Assembly (NCBI RefSeq): GCF_024623785.1
Contig: NZ_JANKBZ010000047.1
Coordinates: 1 to 64,000 of the forward strand
Direction of reading: 5' to 3'
Source of the DNA: Archangium lipolyticum
GTDB lineage: Bacteria; Myxococcota; Myxococcia; Myxococcales; Myxococcaceae
Length of the DNA: 64,000 nucleotides
The translations under genes were made by a program, and so were the position numbers. Of this stretch, positions 25,711 through 45,514 are shown in pieces. Position 1 is the stretch's first letter. Every line of letters begins with the position of its first letter. The notes beneath the pieces were generated by a model, which was not told the DNA's origin, did no database searches, and was given only the letters and a program-made list of their open reading frames with translations.

Positions 25711-25784
25711 GTGCCAGTAGCTCAGCTGGATAGAGCATCGGCCTTCTAAGCCGAGGGTCGTGGGTTCGAGTCCCGCCTGGCGCG
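25711..25784 (+). tRNA. tRNA-Arg (anticodon TCT), integration target of the island
   Basis: Acceptor GTGCCAG pairs with CTGGCGC (one T-G pair), discriminator G. The anticodon stem TCGGC/GCCGA encloses CTTCTAA, anticodon TCT. The T-arm is GGGTTCGAGTCCC. It is 31 nt after tRNA-Pro. Its last 44 nt are repeated at 45515-45558, marking it as the attachment site of the siderophore island. Confidence 0.95.
25741..25784 (+). repeat. Left attachment-site repeat (attL-like)
   Basis: The 3' 44 nt of tRNA-Arg(TCT), from the anticodon stem to the discriminator base. It matches 45515-45558 at 43 of 44 positions. Confidence 0.8.
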
Positions 25785-26000: not shown

Positions 26001-26019
26001 GATTTTGAAAATCGTTATC
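26001..26019 (+). promoter_or_regulatory. Fur box before sbnA-like gene
   Basis: GATTTTGAAAATCGTTATC matches the 19-bp E. coli-type Fur consensus at 15 of 19 positions and continues into TATCAATATCAA, suggesting overlapping operators. It is 56 nt before the sbnA-like ATG. It implies iron repression of the biosynthetic operon. Confidence 0.75.
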
Positions 26020-26074
26020 AATATCAATTTCTGCTCGGCGCGAAGTGGTGCCCGGGGTCTGAAGGGAATCCGCT

Positions 26075-27097
26075 ATGATCCATGAATCCGTGGCCAGTTG
26101 CATTGGCAAGACGCCGTTGGTCCACCTCCGCCGGCTGTTCCCATCCGAGCGTGGGCCCTCGGTCATCGCGAAGCTCGAGTTTCTCAATCCGGGTGGGAGC
26201 GTGAAGGACCGGCCCGCACGCTTCATCGTCGAGCAGGGGCTGAAGGACGGCACCATTCGCAAGGGGACGCACCTGGTGGAGAGCACGTCCGGGAATCTGG
26301 GCATCGCCCTGGCGATGGTGGCGCGCGTCCATGGGCTGACCTTCACCAGCGTGGTGGACCCGAAGATTTCGCAGACCAACCTGCGCATCCTGAAGTCCTA
26401 CGGCGCCCGCATCGACATGGTCAGCGAGCCGGACGACCAGGGCGGCTACCTGAAGACTCGCATTCGTCGGGTGCAAGAGCTGCTGGAAACGATGCCCGGC
26501 AGCGTGTGGATCAACCAGTACGCGAACCAGCTCAACTGGCAGGCACACTTCCACGGCGCGGGCAGCGAAATCGTCCAGGAGCTCGACGCTCCCATCGACT
26601 ACCTGGTGGCTTCGGTGAGCACCACCGGCACCATCCTGGGGCTCGCGAGGCGGCTCCGGAAGGAGTTCCCTCGGCTGCGCGTCATCGCGGTGGACGCGGT
26701 GGGCTCCGTCATCTTCGGCACGCAGCCGGCGCCACGAGATTTGCCCGGCATTGGCTCGAGCCGCGTCCCCGAGCTGCTGTGCAGAGAGGAAATCGACGAG
26801 GTCATCCTGGTCAACGACTGGGAGTCCGTCGAGGGGTGTCGGGAGCTGCTCACCCATGAGGGCATCTTCGCCGGTGGGTCCTCGGGGTCGGTTGTCGCCG
26901 CCATCCGCAAGCTCGCGCCCACGTTGCCCGCTGGCAGCCGGGTGCTGACCCTGTTTCCAGACAGAGGGGAGCGCTACCTGGACCTGTTCTCCGACGAAGC
27001 CTGGCTGTCGAAAATCCGCCTCCGCGCGGAGCAGCAGGTCCCCATGAGCGTCCCGCTTCCCCTGTCCATTCCCCCCCGCACGGCGCGATCCGCCTGA
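26075..27097 (+). CDS. sbnA: SbnA-like PLP enzyme for 2,3-diaminopropionate synthesis
   Basis: A 340-residue cysteine-synthase-fold PLP enzyme. PLP Lys44 lies in NPGGSVKDRPARF, the substrate loop is STSGNLGIAL, and the glycine-rich phosphate loop is STTGTILG. SbnA joins O-phospho-L-serine and L-glutamate to give ACEGA. Assignment over an ordinary cysteine synthase rests on the adjacent SbnB-like gene and the surrounding NIS genes. ATG 26075 follows GAAGGGA. It is the first gene of a tightly packed operon that runs to about 41.5 kb, downstream of a TTGACA promoter and Fur box. Confidence 0.88.
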   Translation: MIHESVASCIGKTPLVHLRRLFPSERGPSVIAKLEFLNPGGSVKDRPARFIVEQGLKDGTIRKGTHLVESTSGNLGIALAMVARVHGLTFTSVVDPKISQTNLRILKSYGARIDMVSEPDDQGGYLKTRIRRVQELLETMPGSVWINQYANQLNWQAHFHGAGSEIVQELDAPIDYLVASVSTTGTILGLARRLRKEFPRLRVIAVDAVGSVIFGTQPAPRDLPGIGSSRVPELLCREEIDEVILVNDWESVEGCRELLTHEGIFAGGSSGSVVAAIRKLAPTLPAGSRVLTLFPDRGERYLDLFSDEAWLSKIRLRAEQQVPMSVPLPLSIPPRTARSA

Positions 27098-27113
27098 GAA
27101 GGACCGCTTCCTC

Positions 27114-28133
27114 ATGACTACCCGCACGAAGGGGCTGCTCTACCTGAGCAAGTCCGACATCCTCCACCTGGGAGGCGACACCTCCGCCCTGTACATGGAC
27201 GCCATCCACCATGCGCTGTCCCGCCACGCGGCGAAAGAATTCGTCCAGCCGCTGAAGCCATACCTGCGCTGGCGCGGCGCCGAGGGGCACATCGCCGACC
27301 GCATCATCGCCATGCCGGCCTACCTGGGCGGCGCGGCGCCCATGGCGGGGCTGAAGTGGATTGGCAGCAAGCACGACAACCCCTCCCGCCACGGACTGGA
27401 GCGCGCCAGCGCGCTCATCGTGCTCAACGACGCCGAGACGCACTACCCCATCGCCATCATGGAGGGCAGCCTCATCTCCGGGATGCGCACCGCCGCGGTG
27501 ACCGCCGTGGCGGCCCGCTACCTCGCGCGCGAGGGATTCCAGCACGTGGCCTGTATCGGGTGCGGTCCCATCGCCCGGATGCAGCTCACGACGCTCCTCG
27601 AGCAGTTCCCTTCCATCGCCATCATCTCCCTCTTCGACCTCTCACCGGCCGCCTCCGCGCGGCTCCGGGAGGAGCTGCAGCCGCGCTTCCCGCGGGTGGA
27701 GTTCCTCATCGCCGCGTCCGCGGAGCAGGCCATCCGGCGCGCGGAGATGGTGGTGACCTGCACCGTCGCGGCCGAGCCGTACATCCCGTTCGAGTGGCTG
27801 GCCCCAGGCACGTTCATCAGCAACGTCTCCATCATGGACGTGCACAAGGAGGTGTTCCTCCAGGTGGACAAGGTCGTGGTGGACGACTGGGACCAGTCCA
27901 ACCGCGAGAAGAAAACCATCAACCAGCTCGTGCTCGAGGGCCGCTTCTCGCGGGAGCAGCTCCATGCGGAGCTGGGGGAAATCGTCATCGGCCGGCGACC
28001 GGGGCGTGAGTCGGCGGACGAAATCATCCTCCTCAACCCGATGGGGATGGCCATCGAGGACATCGCGTGCGCCCAGGCCGTCTACCAGAAGGCCGTCGAT
28101 GCCGAGGTCGGAACGTGGCTGAGCCTCGAGTGA
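27114..28133 (+). CDS. sbnB: SbnB-like N-(1-amino-1-carboxyethyl)glutamate dehydrogenase
   Basis: A 339-residue member of the ornithine cyclodeaminase/mu-crystallin family with an NAD-binding GCGPIARMQL Rossmann loop (about 149-158) and the KWIGSKHDNP substrate segment. SbnB oxidatively hydrolyses ACEGA to L-2,3-diaminopropionate and 2-oxoglutarate, both used later in staphyloferrin B assembly. It lies 16 nt after sbnA. Its stop overlaps the next start (GTGA), a sign of coupling. Ornithine cyclodeaminase is the alternative, but context makes it unlikely. Confidence 0.88.
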   Translation: MTTRTKGLLYLSKSDILHLGGDTSALYMDAIHHALSRHAAKEFVQPLKPYLRWRGAEGHIADRIIAMPAYLGGAAPMAGLKWIGSKHDNPSRHGLERASALIVLNDAETHYPIAIMEGSLISGMRTAAVTAVAARYLAREGFQHVACIGCGPIARMQLTTLLEQFPSIAIISLFDLSPAASARLREELQPRFPRVEFLIAASAEQAIRRAEMVVTCTVAAEPYIPFEWLAPGTFISNVSIMDVHKEVFLQVDKVVVDDWDQSNREKKTINQLVLEGRFSREQLHAELGEIVIGRRPGRESADEIILLNPMGMAIEDIACAQAVYQKAVDAEVGTWLSLE

Positions 28134-30001
28134 CTCCGCCCTCGCCAGCGCCGGCCATGGCCCCACGGCCCCCATCCGGGTACGCTCTGGCAGAACACGC
28201 TGCCACCGAGCGGCTGCTCAACAGCTATTTGCGCGAGACGGGCCTCACAGATCCTCGCATCACCCTGGAGCAACTGCGGGCGCTGTCCCTCCCCAGCGGC
28301 ATCCACGAGGAGCTGTGCGCGGATGGCTGCCCGTTGCGTGTAGAGCTCCCCCGCACGGGGCGGCTCCTCCTCGGTACGCTGCGCCGCGGCTCGCCTTCGG
28401 GCCACCACCGGTACGGCCCCGTTCTCTGGCAATGCTCGGCAATGGGTGTGCCGGGCCGCAGGGTGGACGGTGCCCTGCACCTGGCGCGAATCCTCGTGGC
28501 TGAGCTGGCCAGCGAGGAGGCGGAGCCCGTGGTCCGCGAGCGGCGAATGGACGCCCTGCTTCGCCACATCCAGAACAGCGTCGACAAGACCGCGCTGTAC
28601 CTGGACCGGAGCGCGCAGCGCGAGCCATGGCCGTCGGACGGCGAAGGCCCCAGTGCCTTTCTGGCCGCCGAACAGCGCATCCTCTTCGGACACCCGTTCC
28701 ATCCGACTCCGAAGAGCTCGGAGGGCTTCACCCCTTCGGACCTGGAGCAATACGCGCCAGAGCTGGGTGCCACCTTCCCGCTCCATTACCTGGCTGCATC
28801 GCCGGAGCTCATCGAGGAGGACTTCCTGCCAGGGGCAGGGGAGAACGTCCTGCCGGCGGCGGTTCGTGAGGAGGCCGCCGCGCTGCTGACTTCCACCCGC
28901 GGCGGGTGGAGCCTGCTCCCGTGCCACCCCTGGCAGGTGCGTCACCTGCACGGCCTCCCCGGGTTCCAGCGGCTGCTCGAGGAGCAACGCGTGGTCCACC
29001 TCGGGCCTCTCGGGAAGAGCGTCCACCCCACCTCGTCGGTGCGCACCGTGCTCGCGGAAGGGCACCCCTTCTTCTTCAAGCTTCCGCTCGGCGTTCGAAT
29101 CACCAACCTGGTGCGCGTCAACCCGCCGGAGCAGCTTCAGCGCAGCCTGGGCATCAGCCGCGTGGTGGCGCTGCTCCAGGCACGGGCGCCTCAGCCGGAC
29201 TTCTCCATCCTCCTCGAGACGGGCTACCGCGCGCTCGCTCCCCGGGACTGGGCACCCGAGGAGCGGCACGCCCTCGCCGAGCACACGGCGGTGCTGTTCC
29301 GCGATGCGCGTCCCTGCGCCCACACACCCGCGCCCCTGGTGGTCGCGGCGCTGCTGGAGCCCTCTCCCGGCCACGGCGAGCCGGCCATCATGCGGGCCGT
29401 CCGGCGGGCCACGGGAGTCGCATCGGGCCCCTTGAAGCCCTCGGGCGTGGAGGCCTGGCTCCGGCGCTATCTCCACGTCTCCATGATGCCGCTGCTTCGG
29501 CTCTTCATCGAGGAAGGGCTCAGCCTCGAAGCCCACGTGCAGAACTCGCTGCTGACCCTGAAGGACGGGTGGCCGGAGCGCTTCCATGTGCGCGACCTCG
29601 AGGGAGCGAGCCTGAGCCGTGACCGCGCGGCGGCGCGGGGGTTCCACGACGCCGGTTGCCTGACGGAGACCCACTCGGCGCTCTACGACGACGCAGAGGC
29701 GTGGCAGCGGCTCGCGTACTACTTCTTCGTCAACCACCTGAGCCACCTGCTCGTGACTCTGGCCCTCCACGGCCCGAGTGACGAGCCCAGACTCTGGAAG
29801 GTGGTGCGGAACGTCCTCGAGAGCAACGCCCTCTCGCTCCGCGCGACGGGTGGCGCGCCCTACCTGGATGCGCTTCTCGACGGGCCCACCCTCCCGGGCA
29901 AGGCCAACCTGACCAGTCGCTTCCGGGAGCGCGGGGAGCGACCGCTCTACCTCGAAGTCCCCAACCCCATTCTCGAGCAGGAGGTGCTCCGATGGAGCTG
30001 A
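28130..30001 (+). CDS. sbnE: NIS siderophore synthetase 1, SbnE-like (IucA/IucC family)
   Basis: A 623-residue IucA/IucC synthetase. ATP/substrate motifs: GHPFHPTPKSSEGF, followed by DLEQYAPE as recalled for S. aureus SbnE; LLPCHPWQV; HPTSSVRTV; KLPLGVRITN; EAHVQNSL; and RDLEGASLSR. SbnE activates citrate and couples it to the first L-Dap. GTG 28130 overlaps the sbnB stop; an in-frame ATG at 28157 is possible. The next gene overlaps by 10 nt. The SbnE equivalence is from memory of motifs and from gene order, not a computed alignment. Confidence 0.85.
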   Translation: MTPPSPAPAMAPRPPSGYALAEHAATERLLNSYLRETGLTDPRITLEQLRALSLPSGIHEELCADGCPLRVELPRTGRLLLGTLRRGSPSGHHRYGPVLWQCSAMGVPGRRVDGALHLARILVAELASEEAEPVVRERRMDALLRHIQNSVDKTALYLDRSAQREPWPSDGEGPSAFLAAEQRILFGHPFHPTPKSSEGFTPSDLEQYAPELGATFPLHYLAASPELIEEDFLPGAGENVLPAAVREEAAALLTSTRGGWSLLPCHPWQVRHLHGLPGFQRLLEEQRVVHLGPLGKSVHPTSSVRTVLAEGHPFFFKLPLGVRITNLVRVNPPEQLQRSLGISRVVALLQARAPQPDFSILLETGYRALAPRDWAPEERHALAEHTAVLFRDARPCAHTPAPLVVAALLEPSPGHGEPAIMRAVRRATGVASGPLKPSGVEAWLRRYLHVSMMPLLRLFIEEGLSLEAHVQNSLLTLKDGWPERFHVRDLEGASLSRDRAAARGFHDAGCLTETHSALYDDAEAWQRLAYYFFVNHLSHLLVTLALHGPSDEPRLWKVVRNVLESNALSLRATGGAPYLDALLDGPTLPGKANLTSRFRERGERPLYLEVPNPILEQEVLRWS

Positions 30002-31863
30002 CGGCACGCTCTCCCAGCGATGGCGCCGGAGTGTCACGTTTCCAGGACCTGTTGGATCTGGAAGCTGCTCTCCGGTCCGAGCAGTTCATCGAGGTACGGC
30101 GGCGCATCTTCCGGCAGTTGGTGGAAGCACTCCTCTACGAGGGCGCGCTTCAGCCGGAGAGTGAGCCGGACGGCGAGCAGCTGCGATTCCGGTTTCACGG
30201 GGAGGATGATGCGGGCAGTCCTGTCCGCTACGAGTGCCAGGGGCGGCGCCGCTGGAGCTTCGAGCGCATCCGACTCGGCCCCGGCCCCATCCTGCGTGTC
30301 CGTGGAGACGAGGTGGGCGAGGCGGAGTCCTTCGCGCGGTTCCTCTCGGAGCTGCGTGCGTCCCTCGGCGCGGACCCGGAGCGCCTGGCGCACTTCGTCC
30401 ACGAGTTGGAGCAGACGCACCTCAAGGACACGCTCGCGCAGTACCGGCGGAGCCGCTCTGGCCGCACCCTGCGGAGCCTCCCCTACGACGCGCTCGAGGG
30501 CGAGCTGATGGACGGCCACCCCTACCACCCGTCCTACAAGTCCCGTATCGGCTTCGACGCCGTGGACCACCTCGCCTTTGGCCCGGAGTTCACGCCCGAG
30601 CTGCGGCCGCTGTGGCTCGCGGCCCACCGGGAGTGGACTCACAGCACGGCCTCCGCCGGGATGGAGCCCCGGGAGCTCCTCGCCCGCGAGTTGACGGAGG
30701 CCACGCGGACGCGCTTCCGTCGGATGCTCCTCGAGCGGGGCCTGGCCCCCGATGACTACGTCCTCCTCCCCGTCCACCCCTGGCAGTGGCGGGAGCATGT
30801 CCTCGCCACACTCTTCCCGGAGCTGCGGGACGCCCGCCTCGTGATGCTCGGGGAGGCGGATGACTTCTACACGCCCCAGCAGTCCATCCGGACCCTCGCC
30901 AACCGCAGCCACCCGGAGAATGCGTCCCTCAAGCTTTCGTTGAGCATCCTCAACACCTCCACCGCGCGCACCCTCGCGCCGCACACCGTGGAGAACGCGG
31001 CTCCCATCTCCGACTGGCTCTCCGGCATCGCTCGCGAGGACACCTACCTCCGGGACGAGCTGCGGACCGTCTTCCTTCGGGAGGTGCTGGGCATCTCCTT
31101 CGAAGCGCAGCGCCCGGAGCCGCTGCGGGCGCGGACCTCCGGCATCCTCGCGTGCATCTGGCGAGAGAGCCTCCATCCCTTCCTCGATGCCGGCGAGGAG
31201 GCGCTGCCCTTCACCGGCCTGTGTCACCTCGACGCCGATGGCCGCCCGCTGATTGAACCGTGGGTGCGGCGGTTCGGGCCGGAGCCGTGGGTGCGCCAGC
31301 TCCTGGAGGTGAGCGTCCTGCCGCTCATCCACCTGCTGTATGCGCATGGCATCGCGCTCGAGTCCCATGCGCAGAACATGGTCCTGCTCCACGCCGGAGG
31401 GCTCCCCCGGCGGGTGGCGCTCAAGGACTTCCACGACGGCATCCGCTTCTCGCCAGCCCACCTCGCCCACCCGGAGCGAAGGCCCGTGCTCCGCGCCACG
31501 CCGCCCTCCCACGCGCGCGTGAATCGCAACTCGTACATCCAGACAGAGGACCCGGCGGAGGTCCGCGACTTCGTCCACGACGCGTTCTTCTTCATCAACC
31601 TGGGAGAGCTCGCGCTCTTCCTCGCGGATCACCTCGGCTTCGAGGAGCGCCATTTCTGGGGGCTCGCGCGCGAGGTCATCCTCACATACCAGCGCCGCTT
31701 TCCCGAGCACCGGGAGCGCTTCGCCCTCTTCGATCTCTTCGCGCCAACCACCCAGGTCGAGCAGCTCGCCATGCGCCGCCTGTACCCGGACACCGAGGTG
31801 CGCATGCACTCCGTACGCAACGCGCTCGCGCCCCAGGAGGGCATGGAGGCGGTACACCGATGA
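29992..31863 (+). CDS. sbnF: NIS siderophore synthetase 2, SbnF-like
   Basis: A 623-residue IucA/IucC synthetase with an ~120-residue N-terminal region (VRRRIFRQLVEALLYEG) not shared with synthetase 1. Motifs: GHPYHPSYKSRIGF, LLPVHPWQWRE, PQQSIRTLAN, KLSLSILNTSTARTL, ESHAQNMVL and LKDFHDGIRF. In staphyloferrin B synthesis SbnF condenses the citryl intermediate with a second Dap. It is clearly paralogous to synthetase 4 at 37.7-39.5 kb, with which it shares the N-terminal block and most motifs. It overlaps the next gene by 4 nt (ATGA). Confidence 0.83.
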   Translation: MELTARSPSDGAGVSRFQDLLDLEAALRSEQFIEVRRRIFRQLVEALLYEGALQPESEPDGEQLRFRFHGEDDAGSPVRYECQGRRRWSFERIRLGPGPILRVRGDEVGEAESFARFLSELRASLGADPERLAHFVHELEQTHLKDTLAQYRRSRSGRTLRSLPYDALEGELMDGHPYHPSYKSRIGFDAVDHLAFGPEFTPELRPLWLAAHREWTHSTASAGMEPRELLARELTEATRTRFRRMLLERGLAPDDYVLLPVHPWQWREHVLATLFPELRDARLVMLGEADDFYTPQQSIRTLANRSHPENASLKLSLSILNTSTARTLAPHTVENAAPISDWLSGIAREDTYLRDELRTVFLREVLGISFEAQRPEPLRARTSGILACIWRESLHPFLDAGEEALPFTGLCHLDADGRPLIEPWVRRFGPEPWVRQLLEVSVLPLIHLLYAHGIALESHAQNMVLLHAGGLPRRVALKDFHDGIRFSPAHLAHPERRPVLRATPPSHARVNRNSYIQTEDPAEVRDFVHDAFFFINLGELALFLADHLGFEERHFWGLAREVILTYQRRFPEHRERFALFDLFAPTTQVEQLAMRRLYPDTEVRMHSVRNALAPQEGMEAVHR

Positions 31864-32669
31864 TTCGACCCAACAAGCTGAAGCAGGCGCTCGCGAAGCA
31901 GCAGGCCGTCTTCGGCATCTTCTGCTCCACCCCCTCGCCGATGGTGGTGGAGATGATTGGCTGCGCGGGATTCGATTTCGTCATCATCGACACCGAGCAC
32001 GCGCTGGTGAACCCGGAGACGCTGGAGAACATGGTGCGTGCGGCGGAGGTCGTCGGGATGACGCCGCTGGTGCGGGTGTCGGAGAACGCCCCGGGACCCA
32101 TCCTGCGGGCGCTCGATGCGGGAGCGCAGGGCGTGGTGGTGCCACGCGTGCGCGGGGCCGCGGAAGCCGAGCGGGCGGTGCGAGCGAGCCGCTACTACCC
32201 GGACGGCGAGCGCGGCATGGGGACCGGACGGGCGGCGCGCTTCGGAGGGGTGAACCTCCCGGAATACGTCAAGCAGGCGAACGCCGAGACGCTGGTCGTG
32301 GTGATGATTGAAGACCAGGCAGGGGTGGAGGACATCGACGCCATCCTCCAGGTGCCCGGCGTGGACCTCGTGCTCGAGGGCTCGGCGGACCTGTCGCAGT
32401 CGCTCGGCATCCCCTGGAGCACGCGCCATCCGCGGGTGCGCGAAGCCCTCTACCGGGTCCAGGCGGCGGCCCGCGCACGGGGCATCCCCTTTTGCGCCAT
32501 CCCCAGGGCGATGGAAGACTCCGTCTCCTGGTGGGAGCAGGGTGTGCGGGCGTTCGTCGCGGGTGACGAGCGCGGCGTGGCGTTCCGAGCCCTCCAGGCT
32601 CAACTGCGGCCCTACCAGCAGCTATCGACGGAGCGTACGGAGCGTGACGTCACCGAGGGTGTGCCATGA
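31860..32669 (+). CDS. sbnG: SbnG-like citrate synthase (HpcH/HpaI aldolase family)
   Basis: A 269-residue TIM-barrel metal-dependent aldolase relative. Visible: GFDFVIIDTEHALVN, VRVSENAPGPILRALDAGAQGVVVPRV, the catalytic-region Arg, and metal ligands in VVMIEDQAGVE and GSADLSQSLG. SbnG makes citrate from oxaloacetate and acetyl-CoA, a dedicated supply when the TCA enzyme is limited by low iron. Start ATG 31860 overlaps the previous stop. Although the family contains unrelated aldolases, its place between SbnF- and SbnH-like genes is decisive. Confidence 0.86.
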   Translation: MIRPNKLKQALAKQQAVFGIFCSTPSPMVVEMIGCAGFDFVIIDTEHALVNPETLENMVRAAEVVGMTPLVRVSENAPGPILRALDAGAQGVVVPRVRGAAEAERAVRASRYYPDGERGMGTGRAARFGGVNLPEYVKQANAETLVVVMIEDQAGVEDIDAILQVPGVDLVLEGSADLSQSLGIPWSTRHPRVREALYRVQAAARARGIPFCAIPRAMEDSVSWWEQGVRAFVAGDERGVAFRALQAQLRPYQQLSTERTERDVTEGVP

Positions 32670-33865
32670 CAGAGTTCAGCAAGGTGGTCCAATCCCTGAA
32701 GGCGGAGCGCTCTCACCCCCTGTGCGCTTACATCTATGACCTGGGGCACCTGAAGCGGCATGCCTCCCGGTGCATCGAAACGCTGCCGGCCCCGTGCCGT
32801 CTCTTCTACGCCGTCAAGGCCAACTCGGAAGAGCCCATCCTGCGTGCGCTTGCCCCCATCGTGCACGGCTTCGAGGTCGCCTCGCTCGGGGAGGTGGAGA
32901 AGGTCCGGTCGGTGGCGCCGGATGCTCCCATTCTCTTTGGTGGCCCGGGAAAGACGGATGCGGAGATCGAGGGTGCCCTCCAGCACCGCGTCAGCCTGAT
33001 TCACGTGGAGAGCGCGCATGAGCTCCGGCGGGTGGAGTACCTGGCGGGGAGGGCAGGGCGCGTGGCGGACATCCTTCTGCGCGTCAACCTGCGCGGTCCA
33101 CTCCCCAGCGCGACGCTCTACATGGCGGGGAAGCCGACCCAGTTCGGCATCGATGAGGAGGACATCCCAGCGGTGATTGGACTGGCGAAGCGGTGCCAGC
33201 ACGTGCGCCTGCGGGGGTTCCACTTCCACTCGATTTCGAACGACCTGGATGCGACGGGACATGCCCACCTCGTGGCACACTACCTGCGGCTCACCCGGAC
33301 CTGGGCCGCTCGGTTCTCCCTGGACATTGCCTACGTCAATGCAGGCGGCGGGCTCGGGGTCAACTACCGCCAGCTCGACAAGCAGTTCGATTGGGAGGCC
33401 TTCACCACGGAGCTGAACCAGCTGCTCCCCGACGAGTGTCCACCCGGCGCGTCCATCCTCTTCGAGTGCGGCCGGTACATGACGGCGGCGTGCGGCGCCT
33501 ACGCGGTCGAGATCCTCGATATCAAGCGAAACCACGGCAAGGATTACGTCATCGTCCGGGGTGGCACGCACCACTTCCGGTTGCCCTCCTCCTGGCAGCA
33601 CAGCCATCCCTTCACGCTCGTCCCGTGGGAGGGGTGGACCTCCCCCATCGAGCGGCCGGAGCTGCGCGACGGAACCATCACCGTGGTGGGGCAGCTGTGC
33701 ACGCCCAAGGATGTGCTCGCCTACGACGTCGCCGTGGAGCGGGTGCGCGTCGGCGATGTGATCCTCTTCCAGTATGCGGGAGCGTACGGCTGGTCTATCT
33801 CACACCACGACTTCCTCAGCCATCCACACCCCGAGCAGATTTTCCTGGAAGGTGGGGGATGCTGA
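32666..33865 (+). CDS. sbnH: SbnH-like PLP decarboxylase
   Basis: A 399-residue fold-type III PLP decarboxylase (DAP/ornithine decarboxylase-like). PLP Lys in FYAVKANSEEP, then GFEVASLGEVEKV, GGPGKTDAEIE, FHFHSISNDLD, GGGLGVNY and ECGRYM. SbnH removes CO2 from the citryl-Dap intermediate, giving the diaminoethane part of staphyloferrin B. It overlaps sbnG by 4 nt and the SbnI-like gene by 7 nt. A second copy lies at 39471-40661. Confidence 0.86.
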   Translation: MTEFSKVVQSLKAERSHPLCAYIYDLGHLKRHASRCIETLPAPCRLFYAVKANSEEPILRALAPIVHGFEVASLGEVEKVRSVAPDAPILFGGPGKTDAEIEGALQHRVSLIHVESAHELRRVEYLAGRAGRVADILLRVNLRGPLPSATLYMAGKPTQFGIDEEDIPAVIGLAKRCQHVRLRGFHFHSISNDLDATGHAHLVAHYLRLTRTWAARFSLDIAYVNAGGGLGVNYRQLDKQFDWEAFTTELNQLLPDECPPGASILFECGRYMTAACGAYAVEILDIKRNHGKDYVIVRGGTHHFRLPSSWQHSHPFTLVPWEGWTSPIERPELRDGTITVVGQLCTPKDVLAYDVAVERVRVGDVILFQYAGAYGWSISHHDFLSHPHPEQIFLEGGGC

Positions 33866-34638: not shown

Positions 34639-36458
34639 CTCGCGCGGCCGGGGAACAGCAGGTGATGACCGACCTGGTGAACACGCTGCTGGCCGAGGAC
34701 GTCTTCGGGCTTACAACCCGCGGCGAGCTGCATACCCGCGCCGCGGTGCCTTCCTCGGTCCTCGCCGAGCGCGATGAGGCCTCCACGCATCTCTTGCGCT
34801 TCTGGGTGGAGCCCGGCAAGCGGTTCCTCCTCATTCCCATCACACCCGCGGTCACACAGCCGTATCGCACCTCCTCCGGCGCGGTCATCGAAGTGGAGTG
34901 CGAGCCACATGTGGAGAGGCCGCTCTCCGCCGTCGACTTCCTGCAGACCCTGGCCAGCGCTGCTTCTCACGAGGGCTCCGTGAGTCGTCTGTGTGACGAG
35001 CTTCGGCTGGCAGCCGCGCAGGGGGAGCTCTCCAACGGGGCTCTGGACACCCTTCCCGCGCCGCGGCTGACCTCCCTGCTCGACCTCGAGCGCTGGGCGG
35101 CGTTCCGCGACAGGCCATTTCACCCCGTGGCCAAGGCGAAGGTCGGATGGAACGAGGCCGAGTACCGTTGCTATGCCCCCGAGTTTCACCGGGAGGTCAC
35201 CCTTCGATGGATGGCCGTGCGGAGGGATCATCTGCTCCTCGGGCGGGAGGTTCAGGACTGGAGTCCCGCTGAGCTGCTGCTCCCGGAACCGGAGGTCAGG
35301 GCAGTCATGGCCGCCATGGAGCAGGCCGGCCTGAGTCCCGCGGACTACATGGCCTTGCCCGTCCACCCCTGGCAGATGGAGCGGACTCTTCCCCGCGAGC
35401 TCCAGCCGGAAGTGGCGGCCTCAATCTGTGTCCCGCTGCGGGTAGAGGCCGGAGGCTATGTCGCCAGCTCGTCACTTCGCTCCCTGGCGCCGGTCGGAGG
35501 GGGAGGCCGGCACGTCAAGCTGCCCATCGGCATCGAGTCGCTCGGCGCCATCCGCTCTCTCTCCGCCCTCTCCATGCGGAACGGCGAGCGGGGACAGCAG
35601 TTGCTCCACCAGGTCTTGGGGAAGGATTCCATTCTCTGGGAGCGCCTCCACCTCTGCGATGAGACGGTCTGGTTCGCCTTCTACCCACCGGGCAGCGACT
35701 GGTGGGAAGACCGGCCGCGGCACCTCTCCTGCCTCATCCGGGAGTACCCGGCGCGGCTGCTGAGCGACGGTCGAGTTCAGCTCGTCCCCATGTCCGCGTT
35801 GGCGCAACCCGGGACAGCCTCACACGCACACCTCTTCACGTCCTGGCTGGCGCGACGGGGCCAGGGCACCGCGAGCCGAGCGGAGGTGTTGGAGCTGTTC
35901 CGCTCGGTCTCCACGCGGTTCCTCGGCCTCGCGATGCGCCTGCTGCGGCATGGTGTCCTTCCGGAGATTCATGGCCAGAACGTCTTGCTGGTGCTGAACG
36001 ACGGTGAGGTGGAGGGGCTCCTGCTGAGGGACCATGACACCGTGCGGATTCACCTACCCTGGCTCCAGGAGGCGGGCCTCTCGGACCCACACTACGTCGT
36101 CAAGCCGGGCCGGCCGAACTCGCTCTACAACGAGACCCCGGAGGCGCTGCTGGGGTACCTCCAGACGCTCGGGATTCAGGTCAATCTGTATGGCATCGCC
36201 GATGCGCTCTCCCGGAGCTACGCCATCCAGGAGGCCGAGTTCTTCCGCGTGATCGAGAGCAGTCTGTCCCAGGCGGTGGACAGCGCCGGCTTCTCCGCCG
36301 GTGCGCGAGCCGCGGTGGAGAAGGCGCTGTTCCAGGACCCGGAGTGGCCCGTCAAGATGGTGCTGGCACCGTTGCTGGGCCGTTCCGGTCCCGCGGGGAG
36401 CAGCATGCCGTCCGGGTGGGGCAAGACGGGGAACCCCTTCAGGCGGATGGCCCCCTGA
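34626..36458 (+). CDS. sbnC: NIS siderophore synthetase 3, SbnC-like
   Basis: A 610-residue IucA/IucC synthetase. It starts at GTG 34626, well supported by GAGGGAG 6 nt upstream and overlapping the SbnI-like stop by 13 nt. An alternative ATG lies at 34665. Motifs: DRPFHPVAKAKVGW, LPVHPWQMERTL, ASSSLRSLAPVGGGGRHVKLPIGIESLG, EIHGQNVLL and LLRDHDTVRIH, with PGRPNSLYNETP near the end. This pattern differs from synthetases 1, 2 and 4. Because the MFS exporter follows directly, as in S. aureus C-D, it is assigned as SbnC, the enzyme that adds 2-oxoglutarate. Confidence 0.8.
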   Translation: MRSLTRAAGEQQVMTDLVNTLLAEDVFGLTTRGELHTRAAVPSSVLAERDEASTHLLRFWVEPGKRFLLIPITPAVTQPYRTSSGAVIEVECEPHVERPLSAVDFLQTLASAASHEGSVSRLCDELRLAAAQGELSNGALDTLPAPRLTSLLDLERWAAFRDRPFHPVAKAKVGWNEAEYRCYAPEFHREVTLRWMAVRRDHLLLGREVQDWSPAELLLPEPEVRAVMAAMEQAGLSPADYMALPVHPWQMERTLPRELQPEVAASICVPLRVEAGGYVASSSLRSLAPVGGGGRHVKLPIGIESLGAIRSLSALSMRNGERGQQLLHQVLGKDSILWERLHLCDETVWFAFYPPGSDWWEDRPRHLSCLIREYPARLLSDGRVQLVPMSALAQPGTASHAHLFTSWLARRGQGTASRAEVLELFRSVSTRFLGLAMRLLRHGVLPEIHGQNVLLVLNDGEVEGLLLRDHDTVRIHLPWLQEAGLSDPHYVVKPGRPNSLYNETPEALLGYLQTLGIQVNLYGIADALSRSYAIQEAEFFRVIESSLSQAVDSAGFSAGARAAVEKALFQDPEWPVKMVLAPLLGRSGPAGSSMPSGWGKTGNPFRRMAP

Positions 36459-37675
36459 TGCAACTCGACGAACGGGAGCGCAACCTCCGGGTGCTCTGGT
36501 GCAGCCACTTTCTCTCCGTCACCAGTCTGTGCGTCATTGCCCCCCTGTTGCCGTTCTTTCTGAGGGAACTCGGAGCCACGAGTCAGACATCGGCCCTGAC
36601 GTGGAGCGGCTTCGCGCTGGCGGCCCCCGCGGTCACCTATGCCGTGACAGCTCCGCTCTGGGGCAGGCTGGGTGACCGCTGGGGCCAGAAGTGGATGGTG
36701 GTCCGGGCGCTCGCGGGGCTCGCGCTGACGCTCATCCTCATGGGGTATGCCGAGACTCCGTTCCAGTTCTTCCTTCTCCGCCTGCTCCAGGGGGCGTTCG
36801 GCGGAGTGGTCAGCGCGGGCACGGCCCTGGCCAGCACGCAGGCCTCGGCCGAGAGCCGGGGGCGGGTGCTCGGAAGGCTCGAGAGCGCCGTCGCGGCCGG
36901 CTCGTTGGCGGGCCCCATCATCGGTGGGGTGCTCATGGACTGGTGGAGCTTTCGCCACCTGCTGATCCTCCTGGGAGGACTCCTCGCGCTCTCGGCGGTG
37001 GCCGCGGTGGGCTTGCTGAATAGGGACCGCCCGGTGGCGAGCGTCGCTCGGGCCGGCGTCTGGGGCACGTTTGGCCAGCTCCTGGGAGAGCGCCGCGTCC
37101 GGCGGTTCCTGCTGGCCGGCATTTGCGCCAACCTGGGCGTCTACGGGCTGGTGGCCATCCTCTCCGCACGGGTCAAGGAGCTCTCACCCCTGAGCACCCA
37201 TGCGGCCACCTGGGTGGGCGTCATGCAGGCGGTCACGTGGGCCGCCGCCTTGTTCGGGGCCCCCTGGTGGGGGAAGAGAAACGACACCTCCCTGGTGGAG
37301 CGGAACTTCATCATCGCCTCGTTGCTCTGTGGGACTGGCGTCGCGCTCCAGGCCCTGCCGTTGGGCCTCGAGTGGCTCCTCCCCTGGCGTGCCTTGCAAG
37401 GGTTTGGCTTCAGCGCCCTGCTGCCCTCGGCCCTCCTCATCGTCTCGCAGGCGGCGCCCGAGTCGCAGCGCGGCGCTCACATCGGTGCCGCGAACAGCCT
37501 CCTGGTGGTGGGGCAGATCGGCGGCTCGCTCATGAGCGCCTTCCTCGCCCGGAGTCTCAGCCCGGCGTGGATTTTCGTCACCATGTCGGCCTGCTTCGTG
37601 GCCGGGGCCGCCGCGGTGTGGGTGCCCCAGAAATCATCGGACACTGTCGCGCGGGAAGGAGCGGTCCAGTCGTGA
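36458..37675 (+). CDS. sbnD: MFS siderophore exporter, SbnD-like
   Basis: A 405-residue major facilitator protein with about 12 membrane helices and the MFS loop motif GRLGDRWGQKWM between helices 2 and 3. Residues LLQGAFGGVVSAGTALAS are typical of the drug/siderophore export branch. It starts at ATG 36458 inside the TGATG overlap with the SbnC-like stop. It probably exports the finished siderophore across the inner membrane. No outer-membrane channel gene is nearby. Confidence 0.85.
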   Translation: MQLDERERNLRVLWCSHFLSVTSLCVIAPLLPFFLRELGATSQTSALTWSGFALAAPAVTYAVTAPLWGRLGDRWGQKWMVVRALAGLALTLILMGYAETPFQFFLLRLLQGAFGGVVSAGTALASTQASAESRGRVLGRLESAVAAGSLAGPIIGGVLMDWWSFRHLLILLGGLLALSAVAAVGLLNRDRPVASVARAGVWGTFGQLLGERRVRRFLLAGICANLGVYGLVAILSARVKELSPLSTHAATWVGVMQAVTWAAALFGAPWWGKRNDTSLVERNFIIASLLCGTGVALQALPLGLEWLLPWRALQGFGFSALLPSALLIVSQAAPESQRGAHIGAANSLLVVGQIGGSLMSAFLARSLSPAWIFVTMSACFVAGAAAVWVPQKSSDTVAREGAVQS

Positions 37676-39471
37676 ATGATGGCGTCGGTCGGGTGTTTCA
37701 GTCTCCCCAGCATGCCGTGGTGCGGCGGCGGATTTTCCGCCAGCTCGTGGAGTCGCTGGTCTACGAAGGGATTGTCGAGCCCCAGGTGCGCGCGCTCCAG
37801 GACGGGCTGCTGGAGTTCTCTCTGAGCGGGCGTGATGCGCACGATCAGGAGGTCCGCTACGCCTGCCAAGGGAGGCGAGCGTTTGGCTTCGACCGGGTCC
37901 GGCTCACCGCGCAGCCGGTGCAGCGTGACGGGGAGGAGGCTACCTCCTTGTCCACCTTCCTCCTGGAGATCTCACACCTGCTGAAGGCGGATTCACAGAA
38001 GCTCGCTGCCTTCATCGAGGAGCTCCATCAAACCCTGCTCAAGGACACCCTTGCCCAGGACGTCCGGTTCCAGCAGCCGCCGCTGCGGGAGTCGAGCTAC
38101 GACGAGCTCGAGGGCGAGGTGATGGATGGTCATCCCTACCACCCGTGCTACAAGTCGCGGGTCGGCTTCGACCTGGTGGACAACCAGGCCTTCGGACCGG
38201 AGTTCAAGCCAAGGCTCCGGCTCGTCTGGCTCGCCGTAAGACAGGAAGAGGCCAGGACGGCGGTCGTCCCGGGCCTGGAACTGGATGCCTTCGTGCGGCA
38301 GGAGCTTGGCGCGGCCACCCATGCGCGCTTCGCCGACGCGGTGGCGCTCCGGGGGAGCACCCTGGGAGAGTACACACTCATCCCCGTTCATCCCTGGCAG
38401 TGGCGCGAAATCGTGTCGGGCGGCTTCGTGGATCAGCTTGGCGCGGGCCGGCTCATCTATCTTGGCGAAGGGGAGGATGAGTACCGTCCGCAGCAGTCCA
38501 TCCGGACCCTGGCCAATGCGACCAGGCCCGAGAAGGCCTACGTAAAGTTGCCGCTGAGCATCGCCAACACATCGACGAGTCGCATCCTGTCTCAGCACAC
38601 CATCCTGAATGCCCCTGCCATCTCGGGCTGGCTCGGGGGCATCCAGGAGCAGGATTTATTCTTGCGCGAAGAGTTGGGCCTGACGCTCCTCCGGGAGATC
38701 GTCGGAGTCACCTACCATCACCAGGGGCTTTCCGGCATTCTGGAGCCCAGGGTGTACGGGACGCTGGGGACCATCTGGAGGGAGAGCCTCCATCCCCACC
38801 TGCGCCCGGGCGAAGCGGCTGTCCCCTTCAACGCGCTCTGCCACGTCGCCACGGATGGGCGCCCCCTGATTGACGGGTGGATTCGGGAGCAGGGGGTGGA
38901 GGCCTGGACGCGCGAGCTTCTGGAGGTCGCCATCCTCCCGCTCATCCGCCTGTTGTATGCCCATGGTGTGGCCATGGAGGCGCACGCGCAAAACATGGTG
39001 TTGATACACAGGGCGGGCAGGCCGGCGCGCCTCGCGCTCAAGGACTTCCATGATGGCATCCGGTTCGCGCGGCCCTTCCTGCGGACAGGAGACGCTGGCC
39101 CGAAGACGCAGGGGCCACCCGCCAACCATCCGCGCGTGAACCGGAACTCCTTCCTCGAGAGGGACGACCCGTCCGAGGTGAAGGACTTCTTCCACGACGC
39201 GTTCTTCTTCATCAACCTTGGCGAGCTTTCCCTTTTCCTGCTGGAGCGCTACGGCCTGCCAGAGGAACGCTTCTGGGCGATGGCGGCGGACGTGATTCAC
39301 GGCTACCAGAGACGGTTCCCGCACGAGGCCGAGCGCTTCACCGCCTTCGACCTCTTCTCGGAGCGGATTGCCATCGAGCAACTGACGGGCCGCAGGCTGT
39401 TCGCCGAAGCCGGCACGGGTGTCCACATGGTGAGGAATCCACTCGCCGCCTTCCGTACGGGAGCACGGTAG
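37672..39471 (+). CDS. NIS siderophore synthetase 4, second SbnF-like paralogue
   Basis: A 599-residue IucA/IucC synthetase beginning at a GTG overlapping the exporter stop. It shares with synthetase 2 the N-terminal VVRRRIFRQLVESLVYEG and motifs GHPYHPCYKSRVGF, LIPVHPWQWREIV, PQQSIRTLAN, ANTSTSRILSQHTI, EAHAQNMVL and LKDFHDGIRF. The set found in S. aureus has only one SbnF, so this is an extra enzyme, paired with an extra decarboxylase (next gene). Either it replaces or backs up synthetase 2, or it adds a further unit. All recognisable active-site motifs are intact. Confidence 0.83.
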   Translation: MNDGVGRVFQSPQHAVVRRRIFRQLVESLVYEGIVEPQVRALQDGLLEFSLSGRDAHDQEVRYACQGRRAFGFDRVRLTAQPVQRDGEEATSLSTFLLEISHLLKADSQKLAAFIEELHQTLLKDTLAQDVRFQQPPLRESSYDELEGEVMDGHPYHPCYKSRVGFDLVDNQAFGPEFKPRLRLVWLAVRQEEARTAVVPGLELDAFVRQELGAATHARFADAVALRGSTLGEYTLIPVHPWQWREIVSGGFVDQLGAGRLIYLGEGEDEYRPQQSIRTLANATRPEKAYVKLPLSIANTSTSRILSQHTILNAPAISGWLGGIQEQDLFLREELGLTLLREIVGVTYHHQGLSGILEPRVYGTLGTIWRESLHPHLRPGEAAVPFNALCHVATDGRPLIDGWIREQGVEAWTRELLEVAILPLIRLLYAHGVAMEAHAQNMVLIHRAGRPARLALKDFHDGIRFARPFLRTGDAGPKTQGPPANHPRVNRNSFLERDDPSEVKDFFHDAFFFINLGELSLFLLERYGLPEERFWAMAADVIHGYQRRFPHEAERFTAFDLFSERIAIEQLTGRRLFAEAGTGVHMVRNPLAAFRTGAR

Positions 39472-40661
39472 TGGAGCGAATCAAGGCAAGGATTGACGAA
39501 CACATGCAGCGGGACGGGGCGCGCCCGTTCTGCGCGTTCCTGTACGACTTGAAGCAGTTGAAGGAGCACGTCTCCCGCACCATCGCCCTGCTGCCCTCCA
39601 GGTGCCGCTACTTCTATGCAATCAAGGCGAACTCGGATGCGGCGTTGTTGCGGGCTCTTGCCCCCATCGTTCACGGCTTCGAGGTTGCGTCGTTGGGGGA
39701 GGTGCTCAAGGTACGGGCTGTCACGGCGACCAGTCCCATCCTCTTTGGCGGCCCGGGGAAGACCGACGAGGAGATCGCAGGTGCGATCCACCACCGGGTC
39801 AGCCTGCTGCACGTCGAGAGCCTGAACGAGCTGCGGCGGGTCGAACGCATCGCCGCGAGCCATGGGACGGTCATGGAGCTCCTCTTGCGGGTGAACCTGC
39901 GGGGGCCGCTCCCGGTGGGCACCCTCCAGATGGCTGGCAGGCCGACCCAGTTTGGCATCGATGAGGCGGATGTACCCGCGGCAATCCTTCAGGCGCAGGC
40001 GTCGCCACATCTCCGGCTGCGCGGGTTTCACTTCCACTCGCTGTCGAACAACCTCGAGGTGGAGGAGCACCTGGGCATGGTCGAGCACTACGCCCGCAGG
40101 GTGCGGCAGTGGGCCGAGGAGTTTCACCTGGAGGTCGACTTCGTGAACATGGGCGGTGGCATCGGCGTGAACTACGGCGACTTGCAGGCCCAGTTCGACA
40201 TGCCTGCCTTTGCCGCCAATCTGCCCGCCCGGCTTGAGCCGCTTCCTTCCGAACGCGTCTCGGTCCTGTTCGAGTGTGGCCGGTACTCCGTGGCGTCCTG
40301 CGGGTATTATGCGGCGGAGGTGCTCGACGTCCGGGAGATTCGAGGGAAGACGTTCGCAGTCATCGCCGGCGGGCTCCATCACTTCCTGTTGCCCGGCGCG
40401 TGGAAGCACAGCCACCCCGTCGAGCTCCTTCCGGTAGAGCGGTGGGCCTACCCCTTCGAGCGGCCGGAATGCGTCGACCGTCCCGTGACAATCGTCGGGA
40501 AGATGGACAGTCCCAAGGACATCCTGGCGCAGGATGTGATGCTGCCACGGGTGCGGGTAGGGGATGTGCTCGCCTTCCCCTATGCCGGCGCCTATGGCTG
40601 GGTCATCTCCGCGCATGACTTCAGCAGCCTGCCCCACCCGGAGCATCTCTACCTCGAGTAG
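39471..40661 (+). CDS. Second SbnH-like PLP decarboxylase
   Basis: A 396-residue fold-type III PLP decarboxylase parallel in sequence to the first (FYAIKANSDAA, GGPGKTDEEIA, GRPTQFGIDEADVPA, FHFHSLSNNLE, GGGIGVNY, ECGRYS). It starts at GTG 39471, overlapping the synthetase 4 stop by 1 nt, with GGGAG upstream. It differs from the first copy in many surface and C-terminal residues, so this is not a very recent duplication. Substrate unknown; a citryl-diamino acid is likely. Confidence 0.83.
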   Translation: MERIKARIDEHMQRDGARPFCAFLYDLKQLKEHVSRTIALLPSRCRYFYAIKANSDAALLRALAPIVHGFEVASLGEVLKVRAVTATSPILFGGPGKTDEEIAGAIHHRVSLLHVESLNELRRVERIAASHGTVMELLLRVNLRGPLPVGTLQMAGRPTQFGIDEADVPAAILQAQASPHLRLRGFHFHSLSNNLEVEEHLGMVEHYARRVRQWAEEFHLEVDFVNMGGGIGVNYGDLQAQFDMPAFAANLPARLEPLPSERVSVLFECGRYSVASCGYYAAEVLDVREIRGKTFAVIAGGLHHFLLPGAWKHSHPVELLPVERWAYPFERPECVDRPVTIVGKMDSPKDILAQDVMLPRVRVGDVLAFPYAGAYGWVISAHDFSSLPHPEHLYLE

Positions 40662-40665
40662 GCAC

Positions 40666-41502
40666 GTGTCGATGACGCTCGCCGCGATGGATCGTATCCT
40701 TCCGCTCCTGGCGCCCTATGAGAGCCGCCTGCTCCTGGGGGAGCACCTGCATGGACGGAACGTGGTGCGAGCCTCGGTGTACCTCGAGGACGAGCACCTG
40801 CTGGCCGCGGTGCGGCGGCTGATGGAGACGCTCCAGACGGGCGAGCTGAGGGCGGCCGCCTCGCTCTGGCACAAGCACTACAACGCGGCGCTGTTGTCGG
40901 GGTTCCTGGCGGCCATGACGCTCGCCGGGGTAGGGCTGGACGGCTCTATTTCGAACGTGAGCATGACCCTCTCCGAGGAGGGCCTGCCCAGGGCCGCTGT
41001 CCTGCACTCCCTCGCGGGCATCGTGGTCCATCCACCGCGGCTGAAGCTCGACATCTCAGCGCCCCGCGTCGGCTTGGATGTGCTTCACGGGCGGGTGCTG
41101 TCGAGCCTCTTCGCCAACCACCTGGCGCCCATTGTCGAACAGGTGCATCGCGTGACGGGCTTGCCGAAGAGAATCTTGTGGGGCAACGCCGGCAATCTGT
41201 GCGCGGATGTCTATGACGGACTGAGGGCCCGCCCCGAGGTCGCGGCGGCAGTCGAGGAAGACCGGCGAATCCTCCTGGAGCAACCGGACAGCCCGCTCAT
41301 GCCCGGGCCGAACCCGCTTCACCAGTCGGTCCGCTATGAGGACCTGAGCGGATTCGGCCGTGCGTCTGTCGTCCGGGTCCGCAAGACGTGCTGCCAGCGC
41401 TACAAGCTGCCTGGCCTGCTCCATTGCTACACCTGCCCCATCTTGAAGGGCCACGAGCGTGTGGCGCTCCTGCGGAAGCTGGGCCTGCCCGAGCACACCT
41501 GA
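40666..41502 (+). CDS. FhuF-like ferric siderophore reductase ([2Fe-2S])
   Basis: A 278-residue protein with the C-terminal cysteine set CCxRYxLPGxxxCxTCP (about 250-266: TCCQRYKLPGLLHCYTCPI), the unusual C-C-x10-C-x2-C [2Fe-2S] site of FhuF. The mid-part matches the IucA/C-like FhuF fold. It would reduce Fe(III) of the imported siderophore in the cytoplasm. GTG 40666 is chosen, with an ATG alternative at 40672; support for either start is weak. It is the last gene of the main operon. Confidence 0.82.
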   Translation: MSMTLAAMDRILPLLAPYESRLLLGEHLHGRNVVRASVYLEDEHLLAAVRRLMETLQTGELRAAASLWHKHYNAALLSGFLAAMTLAGVGLDGSISNVSMTLSEEGLPRAAVLHSLAGIVVHPPRLKLDISAPRVGLDVLHGRVLSSLFANHLAPIVEQVHRVTGLPKRILWGNAGNLCADVYDGLRARPEVAAAVEEDRRILLEQPDSPLMPGPNPLHQSVRYEDLSGFGRASVVRVRKTCCQRYKLPGLLHCYTCPILKGHERVALLRKLGLPEHT

Positions 41503-41513: not shown

Positions 41514-41608
41514 CGCGCCCGGGCGCCACTGTGGACTTGTCCTCCGTGACGGCGAGCCGCGCGTCCACGCCCGCTTGACAGCTTCCGGAATGGCGGATAG
41601 ACGCAATT

Positions 41609-41627
41609 GATATTGATTCTCAACATC
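41609..41627 (+). promoter_or_regulatory. Fur box before the PepSY gene
   Basis: GATATTGATTCTCAACATC matches the Fur consensus at 14 of 19 positions, 14 nt before the PepSY ATG. It suggests that this gene is separately iron-regulated. Confidence 0.6.
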
Positions 41628-45384: not shown

Positions 45385-45514
45385 CTAGGATGCAGCAAGA
45401 ACCTTGGTGGACCCTGGAGCCGGGTGTGGCGGTTGGAAAGGCCCTGCTGCCGGAGCCTCAAATGGTTACGGGGGTTTGCGAAAGCCTGCTAACCGTTGGA
45501 GGATTCGCCCCTCC

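What the first reader, a model, noticed from the sequence alone, without database searches (positions are those of the whole stretch)
26075..41502. Staphyloferrin B-type NIS siderophore locus in a myxobacterium
A nearly gapless operon encodes likely equivalents of every S. aureus sbnA-I product (A, B, E, F, G, H, I, C, D), plus a FhuF-like reductase. The order A-B-EFGHI-CD differs from ABCDEFGHI by moving one C-D block. Myxobacteria are known mainly for catecholate siderophores (myxochelins), so a carboxylate-type pathway here is notable. Motifs and order are seen; product class is inferred from the sbn pathway.
Basis: partly seen in the sequence, partly recalled or inferred. Interest (0 to 1): 0.88.

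Follow-up and report, generated by a model that had tools for sequence, protein, structure and literature searches.

The report
Mobile hybrid carboxylate siderophore island
A soil myxobacterium carries a transferable block of iron-scavenging genes that looks like the Staphylococcus staphyloferrin B pathway plus an extra pair of enzymes related to a second pathway, so it probably makes a related but different iron-binding molecule.

Summary
It encodes four, not three, NIS synthetases (E, F1, C, F2) and two, not one, SbnH-type decarboxylases (H1, H2). A, B, E, F1, G, H1 and I resemble the staphyloferrin B set. The 'moved C-D block' is really C-D-F2-H2. F2 falls on the branch that also holds achromobactin AcsC-type enzymes; C is split from every canonical SbnC in the tree by a strong branch and lies between them and AcsA-type enzymes. 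The six-member H2 clade has lost the otherwise invariant catalytic cysteine and a citryl-binding arginine, yet is under purifying selection. Tumebacillus avium has the same two blocks, divergently arranged. Here the operon lies in a 19.77-kb insertion flanked by an exact 37-bp repeat of a tRNA-Arg 3' end; four of six relatives examined have the empty site. Near-identical copies (94-97% nt) sit at other sites in Archangium lansinium and in a second genus. Fur-box-like sites precede the three transcription units. Best reading: a horizontally mobile, iron-regulated staphyloferrin B/achromobactin hybrid pathway with an unknown carboxylate product; staphyloferrin B itself is possible but not the best fit. 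New variant of a known kind.

The parts
25748..25784 (+). attL-like copy of the 37-bp direct repeat, the 3' end of tRNA-Arg(tct) 25711-25784
   Evidence: exact 37-bp match at both ends, expected 0.00 by chance; empty site in four of six relatives
26006..26020 (+). Fur-box-like site upstream of A
   Evidence: 2 mismatches to TGATAATNATTATCA; 3 sites in window, expected 0.05
26075..27097 (+). A: SbnA-type enzyme, first step to Dap
   Evidence: TIGR03945 418.6 bits over cut-off; SbnA 5d84 428.8 bits
27114..28133 (+). B: SbnB-type dehydrogenase, second step to Dap
   Evidence: TIGR03944 410 bits over cut-off; 4m54 431.3 bits
28130..30001 (+). E: type A NIS synthetase (SbnE/AcsD-like); start codon uncertain
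   Evidence: Pfam IucA_IucC; AcsD best in PDB, 147 bits; SbnE side of tree
29992..31863 (+). F1: type C NIS synthetase on the canonical SbnF side
   Evidence: SbnF model 590.5 bits, below its 900 cut-off; trees
31860..32669 (+). G: SbnG-type HpcH/HpaI-fold citrate synthase
   Evidence: 4tv5 238.8 bits
32666..33865 (+). H1: SbnH-type PLP decarboxylase with the catalytic Cys
   Evidence: 6knh 426.4 bits; C345 present
33865..34638 (+). I: SbnI-type serine kinase/regulator
   Evidence: NF033589 191.2 bits, below cut-off 350; SbnI 6nr6 163.7 bits
34662..36458 (+). C: type B-like NIS synthetase between SbnC and AcsA clades; start 34662 or 34665
   Evidence: SbnC model 450.4 bits, below 700; 7cbb 347 bits; trees
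36458..37675 (+). D: MFS exporter
   Evidence: Pfam MFS_1
37672..39471 (+). F2: second type C NIS synthetase, in the two-F-cluster clade on the AcsC side
   Evidence: SbnF model 592.9 bits; AsbB 3to3 487 bits; clade 100/99
39471..40661 (+). H2: second PLP decarboxylase; catalytic Cys to Asp, citryl-binding Arg to Leu
   Evidence: 6knh 383 bits
40672..41502 (+). FhuF-type siderophore-iron reductase; start uncertain
   Evidence: TIGR03951 91.7 bits over cut-off 63.85
41608..41622 (+). Fur-box-like site upstream of the PepSY gene
   Evidence: 2 mismatches
41642..42766 (+). PepSY_TM membrane protein, probable iron-reductase/uptake partner
   Evidence: Pfam PF03929 230.7 bits
42897..45104 (-). TonB-dependent receptor, probable ferri-siderophore receptor
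   Evidence: Plug + barrel; best NCBIfam RhtA 213.7 bits, far below its 1100 cut-off
45171..45185 (.). Fur-box-like site upstream of the TonB receptor
   Evidence: 3 mismatches
45200..45400 (-). HTH_17 (excisionase-type) fragment, approximate limits
   Evidence: PF12728 33.7 bits, cut-off 27
45522..45558 (+). attR-like second copy of the 37-bp repeat

Best explanation
A horizontally mobile genomic island carries a complete iron-regulated carboxylate-siderophore system that is a hybrid of the staphyloferrin B and achromobactin lineages. Shown: gene content, phylogeny, island borders, empty sites, Fur-like sites. Inferred: A and B make Dap (I feeding phosphoserine, G citrate); E joins citrate and Dap; H1 decarboxylates it to citryl-diaminoethane; F1 adds a second Dap; H2, with its remodelled pocket, acts on a later, bulkier and less charged intermediate (most likely the citryl diamide) rather than on citryl-Dap; C, and F2 for an alternative amine addition, complete an alpha-ketoglutarate-capped citrate scaffold resembling staphyloferrin B plus a further unit, possibly with two alpha-ketoglutarates as in achromobactin. 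D exports it, the TonB receptor imports it, FhuF/PepSY_TM release the iron.
For: Four NIS and two decarboxylases, sharing the family's conserved positions. F1 and F2 are old, distinct lineages: a myxobacterial duplication is rejected (p-AU 0.00013) and F2 of two-F clusters forms a 100/99 clade. C is separated from canonical SbnC by a 100/99.6 branch. The H2 clade (6 of 81 rows, SH-aLRT 99) lacks the catalytic Cys in 6 of 6, against Cys in 74 of 74 other rows with a residue there; R304 (SbnH numbering) is L in 6 of 6 against R in 75 of 75. PMC7857480 (passages) puts R304 on the ligand and describes the Cys loop. H2 dN/dS is 0.16 and 0.29. T. avium has the same two blocks. Island. Fur-like sites recur in both other copies and in T. 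avium (no chance control there).
Against: No chemistry. F1 and F2 differ at only two group-diagnostic columns, so a distinct F2 substrate is not shown. Loss of the catalytic Cys could mean a weak or non-decarboxylating H2. In the unrooted C tree the window rows also join canonical SbnC, with weak support (88/68). No Dab aminotransferase (the achromobactin precursor gene) is in the operon. No integrase is in the island, and the tRNA-Arg repeat was not found (up to 6 mismatches) around the other two copies, so how the island moves is not shown.
Confidence: 0.68

Rival explanations
1. Ordinary staphyloferrin B locus: A-I make staphyloferrin B; F2 and H2 are redundant or boosting copies.
For: All SbnA-I counterparts are present; C retains 347 bits to 7cbb; F1 and F2 are identical at 313 of 596 aligned positions and differ at only two diagnostic columns.
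Against: F2 and H2 are old lineages kept in unrelated phyla and under purifying selection; H2 has lost active-site residues; C is split from canonical SbnC.
Confidence: 0.22
2. Two siderophores from one operon: block 1 plus C makes staphyloferrin B, block 2 (C, F2, H2) makes a second analogue from shared precursors.
For: Block 2 is a separate divergent unit in T. avium; 16 of 77 loci have A, B, E, two F and H without C or G, so two-F pathways occur alone.
Against: Only one exporter and one TonB receptor are in the island; T. avium and the three myxobacteria keep both blocks together.
Confidence: 0.25
3. H2 is a catalytically dead regulator of H1, like antizyme inhibitor for ornithine decarboxylase (analogy recalled).
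For: Catalytic Cys absent in 6 of 6 H2 rows; each of the six genomes with H2 also has an H1.
Against: The PLP lysine is kept in all 81 rows; the substitutes D, N and H could in part serve as proton donors (inference).
Confidence: 0.15

Closest known systems
Staphyloferrin B sbnABCDEFGHI of Staphylococcus
   Same: Counterparts of all nine products; Dap-supplying A/B, citrate synthase G, serine kinase I
   Different: Four NIS and two decarboxylases instead of three and one; C outside the canonical SbnC group; different order; TonB receptor, FhuF and PepSY_TM; on an inserted island
Achromobactin acsD-acsE-yhcA-acsC-acsB-acsA (Pseudomonas, Dickeya; similar locus on a Sodalis plasmid)
   Same: F2 and C lie nearest the AcsC and AcsA lineages; same enzyme types
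   Different: No Dab aminotransferase (acsF); E is on the SbnE branch; SbnA/B supply Dap; extra F and H
Tumebacillus avium NIS locus (NZ_CP021434.1; no report found)
   Same: Same two blocks A-B-E-F1-G-H1-I and C-D-F2-H2 in the same internal orders; H2 without the Cys
   Different: Blocks divergent; C 48%, F2 58%, H2 62% identical; E split across two frames in that record
Bacillus badius plasmid pPM400 / Paenibacillus two-F loci (no report found)
   Same: A, B, E, F1, F2, H
   Different: No C, no G, single ordinary H

Membership tests
Staphyloferrin B locus | SbnA/SbnB Dap pair, not cysteine synthase/OCD | tested here: met
   TIGR03945 and TIGR03944 over cut-off; cysteine synthase and ornithine cyclodeaminase models under theirs
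Staphyloferrin B locus | SbnE type A synthetase | tested here: met
   E on SbnE side of tree, AcsD best in PDB; NCBIfam showed no SbnE model hit
Staphyloferrin B locus | SbnF type C synthetase | tested here: met
   F1 on canonical SbnF side; below NCBIfam exception cut-off 900
Staphyloferrin B locus | SbnC in the SbnC clade | tested here: inconclusive
   450 bits under cut-off 700; split from canonical SbnC by 100/99.6, but next to it in the unrooted tree, 88/68
Staphyloferrin B locus | SbnG, SbnH, SbnI counterparts | tested here: met
   I is under the NF033589 equivalog cut-off
Staphyloferrin B locus | Exactly three NIS synthetases and one decarboxylase | tested here: not met
   four and two
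Staphyloferrin B locus | Product is staphyloferrin B | not testable with these tools
   needs LC-MS
Achromobactin locus | Dab aminotransferase acsF in the cluster | tested here: not met
   none among the operon, PepSY and TonB genes; the rest of the genome was not searched for one
Achromobactin locus | AcsC- and AcsA-lineage synthetases | tested here: inconclusive
   F2 on the AcsC side in a clade of its own; C at the base of the AcsA side
tRNA-integrated genomic island | Direct repeat with tRNA 3' end; empty site in relatives | tested here: met
   exact 37-bp repeat; site contiguous in 4 of 6 relatives fetched
tRNA-integrated genomic island | Own integrase | tested here: not met
   no integrase among the island genes; only an HTH_17 fragment

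The most novel reading that the evidence does not exclude
H2 founds a new enzyme subfamily, a cysteine-less citryl-diamide decarboxylase (or decarboxylating transaminase), and with F2 and C makes a new class of citrate siderophore that joins the staphyloferrin B and achromobactin logics, shared between Bacillota and myxobacteria and spread among the latter on a mobile island.
Probability: 0.35. Interest if true: 0.7.

Novelty: new variant of a known kind. Interest (0 to 1): 0.6.

Why it matters
It would be a four-synthetase, two-decarboxylase extension of a well-studied siderophore pathway, and a clear test case for how NIS pathways grow by block shuffling. H2 offers a natural experiment on the catalytic cysteine of alanine-racemase-fold decarboxylases. 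The island shows a whole iron-acquisition system moving between genera of predatory bacteria that already carry a myxochelin receptor (MxcH over cut-off in this genome and in 5 of 5 congeners). A carboxylate-only siderophore would add a third type to the two named for myxobacteria in PMC10127202 (passages).

Tried and rejected
Lineage-specific duplication of F in myxobacteria: rejected (p-AU 0.00013). A 19-bp Fur consensus: 0 hits with up to 3 mismatches; the shorter 7-1-7 form gave 3. Plasmid SbnI hit in Staphylococcus epidermidis as an sbn reference: it is not an sbn locus. AlphaFold of H2 from a single sequence: mean pLDDT 35, discarded, no fold search run. tRNA 3'-end integration for the other two copies: in G138 the island lies on the 5' side of a tRNA-Leu, no tRNA was found in the stretches read at the G062 copy, and the 37-bp repeat was not found at either; tRNA targeting is supported for the window only. 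The G062 empty site was not resolved. G064 as an island hotspot: its DNA beyond tRNA-Arg does not match the window for the 9 kb fetched, but none of the five ORFs scanned there matched an integrase. Nearest-neighbour F1/F2 labels were not trusted until trees were built. A first check of the PLP lysine read the neighbouring column (Ala52); redone.

Weak points: trees are short searches; loci reach at most 10 kb on each side; only 78 of 335 relatives were kept by the scan, so other four-synthetase loci may be missed. Flanking genes at the G062 and G138 copies were partly named by eye; Pfam confirmed a Ribonuclease T2 gene and a class II DAHP synthase at G062 and a DDE_3 transposase at G138, with no hit for one further ORF, and ffh and MxcH were confirmed; the myxochelin NRPS and its two neighbours were named by eye only.
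Full report
WHAT IS THERE. Between 26075 and 41502 a compact + strand operon encodes A, B, E, F1, G, H1, I, C, D, F2, H2 and FhuF. SbnA and SbnB models score 418.6 and 410 bits, over their equivalog cut-offs, while cysteine synthase and ornithine cyclodeaminase models stay under theirs. Four genes are IucA/IucC synthetases; they are the only four matches in the 12.6-Mb genome. F1 and F2 score 590.5 and 592.9 bits to the SbnF model, C 450.4 to SbnC; all are under the 'exception' cut-offs of those models. Two genes are SbnH-type decarboxylases, 426 and 383 bits to 6knh.

TWO BLOCKS, NOT A MOVED C-D PAIR. A scan of one genome per species found 335 relatives and kept 78 loci. Gene content was scored in 77: A. 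lansinium was left out because it is a copy of the window operon, and T. avium was represented by a longer stretch. 17 of 77 have two or more F-type synthetases, 12 of 77 have the canonical single-F set with I, 16 of 77 have A, B, E, two F and H without C or G, and 1 of 77 (T. avium) has two F and C. T. avium holds A-B-E-F1-G-H1-I on one strand and C-D-F2-H2 divergently on the other: the same two blocks, each in the window's order. The window operon is these blocks head to tail.

PHYLOGENY. In a 47-row careful tree, F2 of two-F clusters forms a clade (11 rows, 100/99), and a myxobacterial duplication giving F1 and F2 is rejected (p-AU 0.00013). In a 107-row quick tree F2 lies in a 62-row group (SH-aLRT 97) with the F-type enzymes of the achromobactin-like Pseudomonas and Sodalis loci, while F1 is on the other side of that split with canonical SbnF rows. 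The AcsC and AcsA labels rest on the Pseudomonas gene order in PMC3329529 (passages) matched. For C, a 41-row tree separates the window and T. avium rows plus the AcsA/Paenibacillus rows from canonical SbnC at 100/99.6; against this, the branch joining window and T. avium to canonical SbnC on the other side has 88/68, so C is intermediate. In the larger tree with E rows the window C is in the AcsA-side group (39 rows, SH-aLRT 100), and E is on the SbnE side.

H2 IS REMODELLED. H2 of the window, two other myxobacteria, T. avium and two Paenibacillus form a clade (6 of 81 rows, SH-aLRT 99). PMC7857480 (passages) places R304, S308, W309, K347 and H379 of SbnH at or near the bound citryl group and describes a catalytic Cys loop; I mapped these through the 6knh alignment. 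In the six H2 rows R304 is L (75 of 75 others R), Cys344 is D, N or H (74 of 75 others C, one gap), H379 is A (67 of 75 others H, but 6 also A), S308 is A (23 of 75 others also A), K347 is K in four and R in two, and W309 is kept. The PLP lysine is K in 81 of 81. dN/dS of H2 is 0.157 and 0.291 against G062 and G138: the lowest and the fifth lowest of 13 genes; H1 has 0.169 and 0.146. So H2 is conserved but not an SbnH replica. Loss of basic residues at the citryl group fits a substrate in which a citrate carboxylate is already an amide; this step is inference.

A MOBILE ISLAND. An exact 37-bp repeat of the tRNA-Arg(tct) 3' end lies at 25748-25784 and 45522-45558. I fetched the site in six relatives. 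In four (G065, the closest by flank identity; G062, G061, G138) window positions 25784 and about 45512 abut, overlapping by one 44-47-bp copy, and the tRNA-Pro-Arg-His-Arg array is uninterrupted. In G092 about 1.8 kb with a Peptidase_M24 gene lies between tRNA-Arg and tRNA-His, and in G064 the 9 kb fetched beyond tRNA-Arg does not match the window. The insertion is therefore about 19.77 kb. Only 3 of 195 phylum genomes show four IucA_IucC matches: this one, G062 (A. lansinium, same genus) and G138 (another genus of the family). Their copies are 94-97% identical in DNA to the window, while flanking DNA at the tRNA site is 86-91% (G062) and 71-83% (G138). Protein identities of the 14 island genes exceed those of 16 flanking genes (Mann-Whitney p 0.002 for G062 and 0.00002 for G138, values). 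The copies sit elsewhere: in G062 near the myxochelin receptor MxcH at 8669400, in G138 between tRNA-Leu and ffh, which are next to each other in congener G122 (12 bp between the matched stretches). In G138 the TonB block is inverted. No integrase is in the island; an HTH_17 fragment lies beside the right repeat, and a DDE_3 transposase gene lies beside the G138 copy. The 37-bp repeat is absent around the G062 and G138 copies at up to 6 mismatches.

REGULATION AND TRANSPORT. Three Fur-box-like sites, the only ones in 64 kb at up to 3 mismatches (expected 0.05), precede A, the PepSY gene and the TonB receptor. Counterparts lie at the matching places in the G062 and G138 copies, and four lie in the divergent promoter of T. 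avium; further matches lie outside (G062 near the end of the stretch, T. avium at three other places), and no chance control was run for these loci. The consensus is recalled.

MECHANISM. From the S. aureus pathway (PMC3179956, passages; PMC9301485, passages): SbnE joins citrate and Dap, SbnH decarboxylates, SbnF adds Dap, SbnC adds alpha-ketoglutarate. A, B, E, H1, F1 and C could do the same here. F2, H2 and the AcsA-side C point to an extra unit or to a second decarboxylation. That AcsA installs alpha-ketoglutarate in achromobactin is recalled. The exact product is not known; staphyloferrin B itself remains a rival.

LITERATURE. Searches in the held open-access library (titles and abstract starts seen) listed no paper on a staphyloferrin B-type locus in myxobacteria or on a four-synthetase locus of this kind. 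I opened passages of the nearest ones. The paper describing A. lansinium has no occurrence of staphyloferrin (PMC10435759). The survey of conserved Myxococcota clusters names five, none of them NIS (PMC12766979). NIS clusters with one or two IucA/IucC genes are reported in marine myxobacteria (PMC6226438). The one paper listed with both 'staphyloferrin B' and 'myxobacteria' uses the former only in its reference list (PMC9248904). Subscription papers are not covered, and supplements were not searched.

VERDICT. Real, more unusual than reported in enzyme content and mobility, less certain in product. New variant of a known kind.

Noticed in passing
window 45880-47058 (-): RecT/Bet-family gene between tRNA genes, found at the matching place in G062, G138 and G065 (79, 69 and 95% identity), so chromosomal rather than part of the island.
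   Followed up: partly
L036 (NZ_CP121498.1) 5519-10221; L037: SbnI-like and SbnA-like genes with no NIS match nearby on a Staphylococcus epidermidis plasmid and in the stretch of a Bacillaceae plasmid, suggesting another pathway that uses this pair.
   Followed up: no
L043, L044, L045 and similar: Eleven genomes of the same family have exactly two NIS matches, a separate locus; the three examined have one E-type and one F-type enzyme.
   Followed up: partly
L052, L054, L060, L063 and 12 more: 16 of 77 loci, 12 of them Paenibacillus, hold A, B, E, two F and H but no C or G: a Dap-citrate pathway for which I found no report.
   Followed up: partly
L129 15796-17543 (-): The E gene of Tumebacillus avium lies in two reading frames in the record.
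   Followed up: no
L039 (G062): In A. lansinium the island sits beside a myxochelin receptor, a class II DAHP synthase and, by eye, myxochelin-type synthetase genes; that genome has a second MxcH match.
   Followed up: partly
L134 1-9050 (G064): Beyond tRNA-Arg(tct) this congener has 9 kb of other DNA, a possible second insertion at the same tRNA; no integrase among five ORFs scanned.
   Followed up: partly
L046, L047 (G139): A fragmentary genome of the same family has pieces of another locus with H-, G-, E- and C-like genes at contig ends.
   Followed up: no
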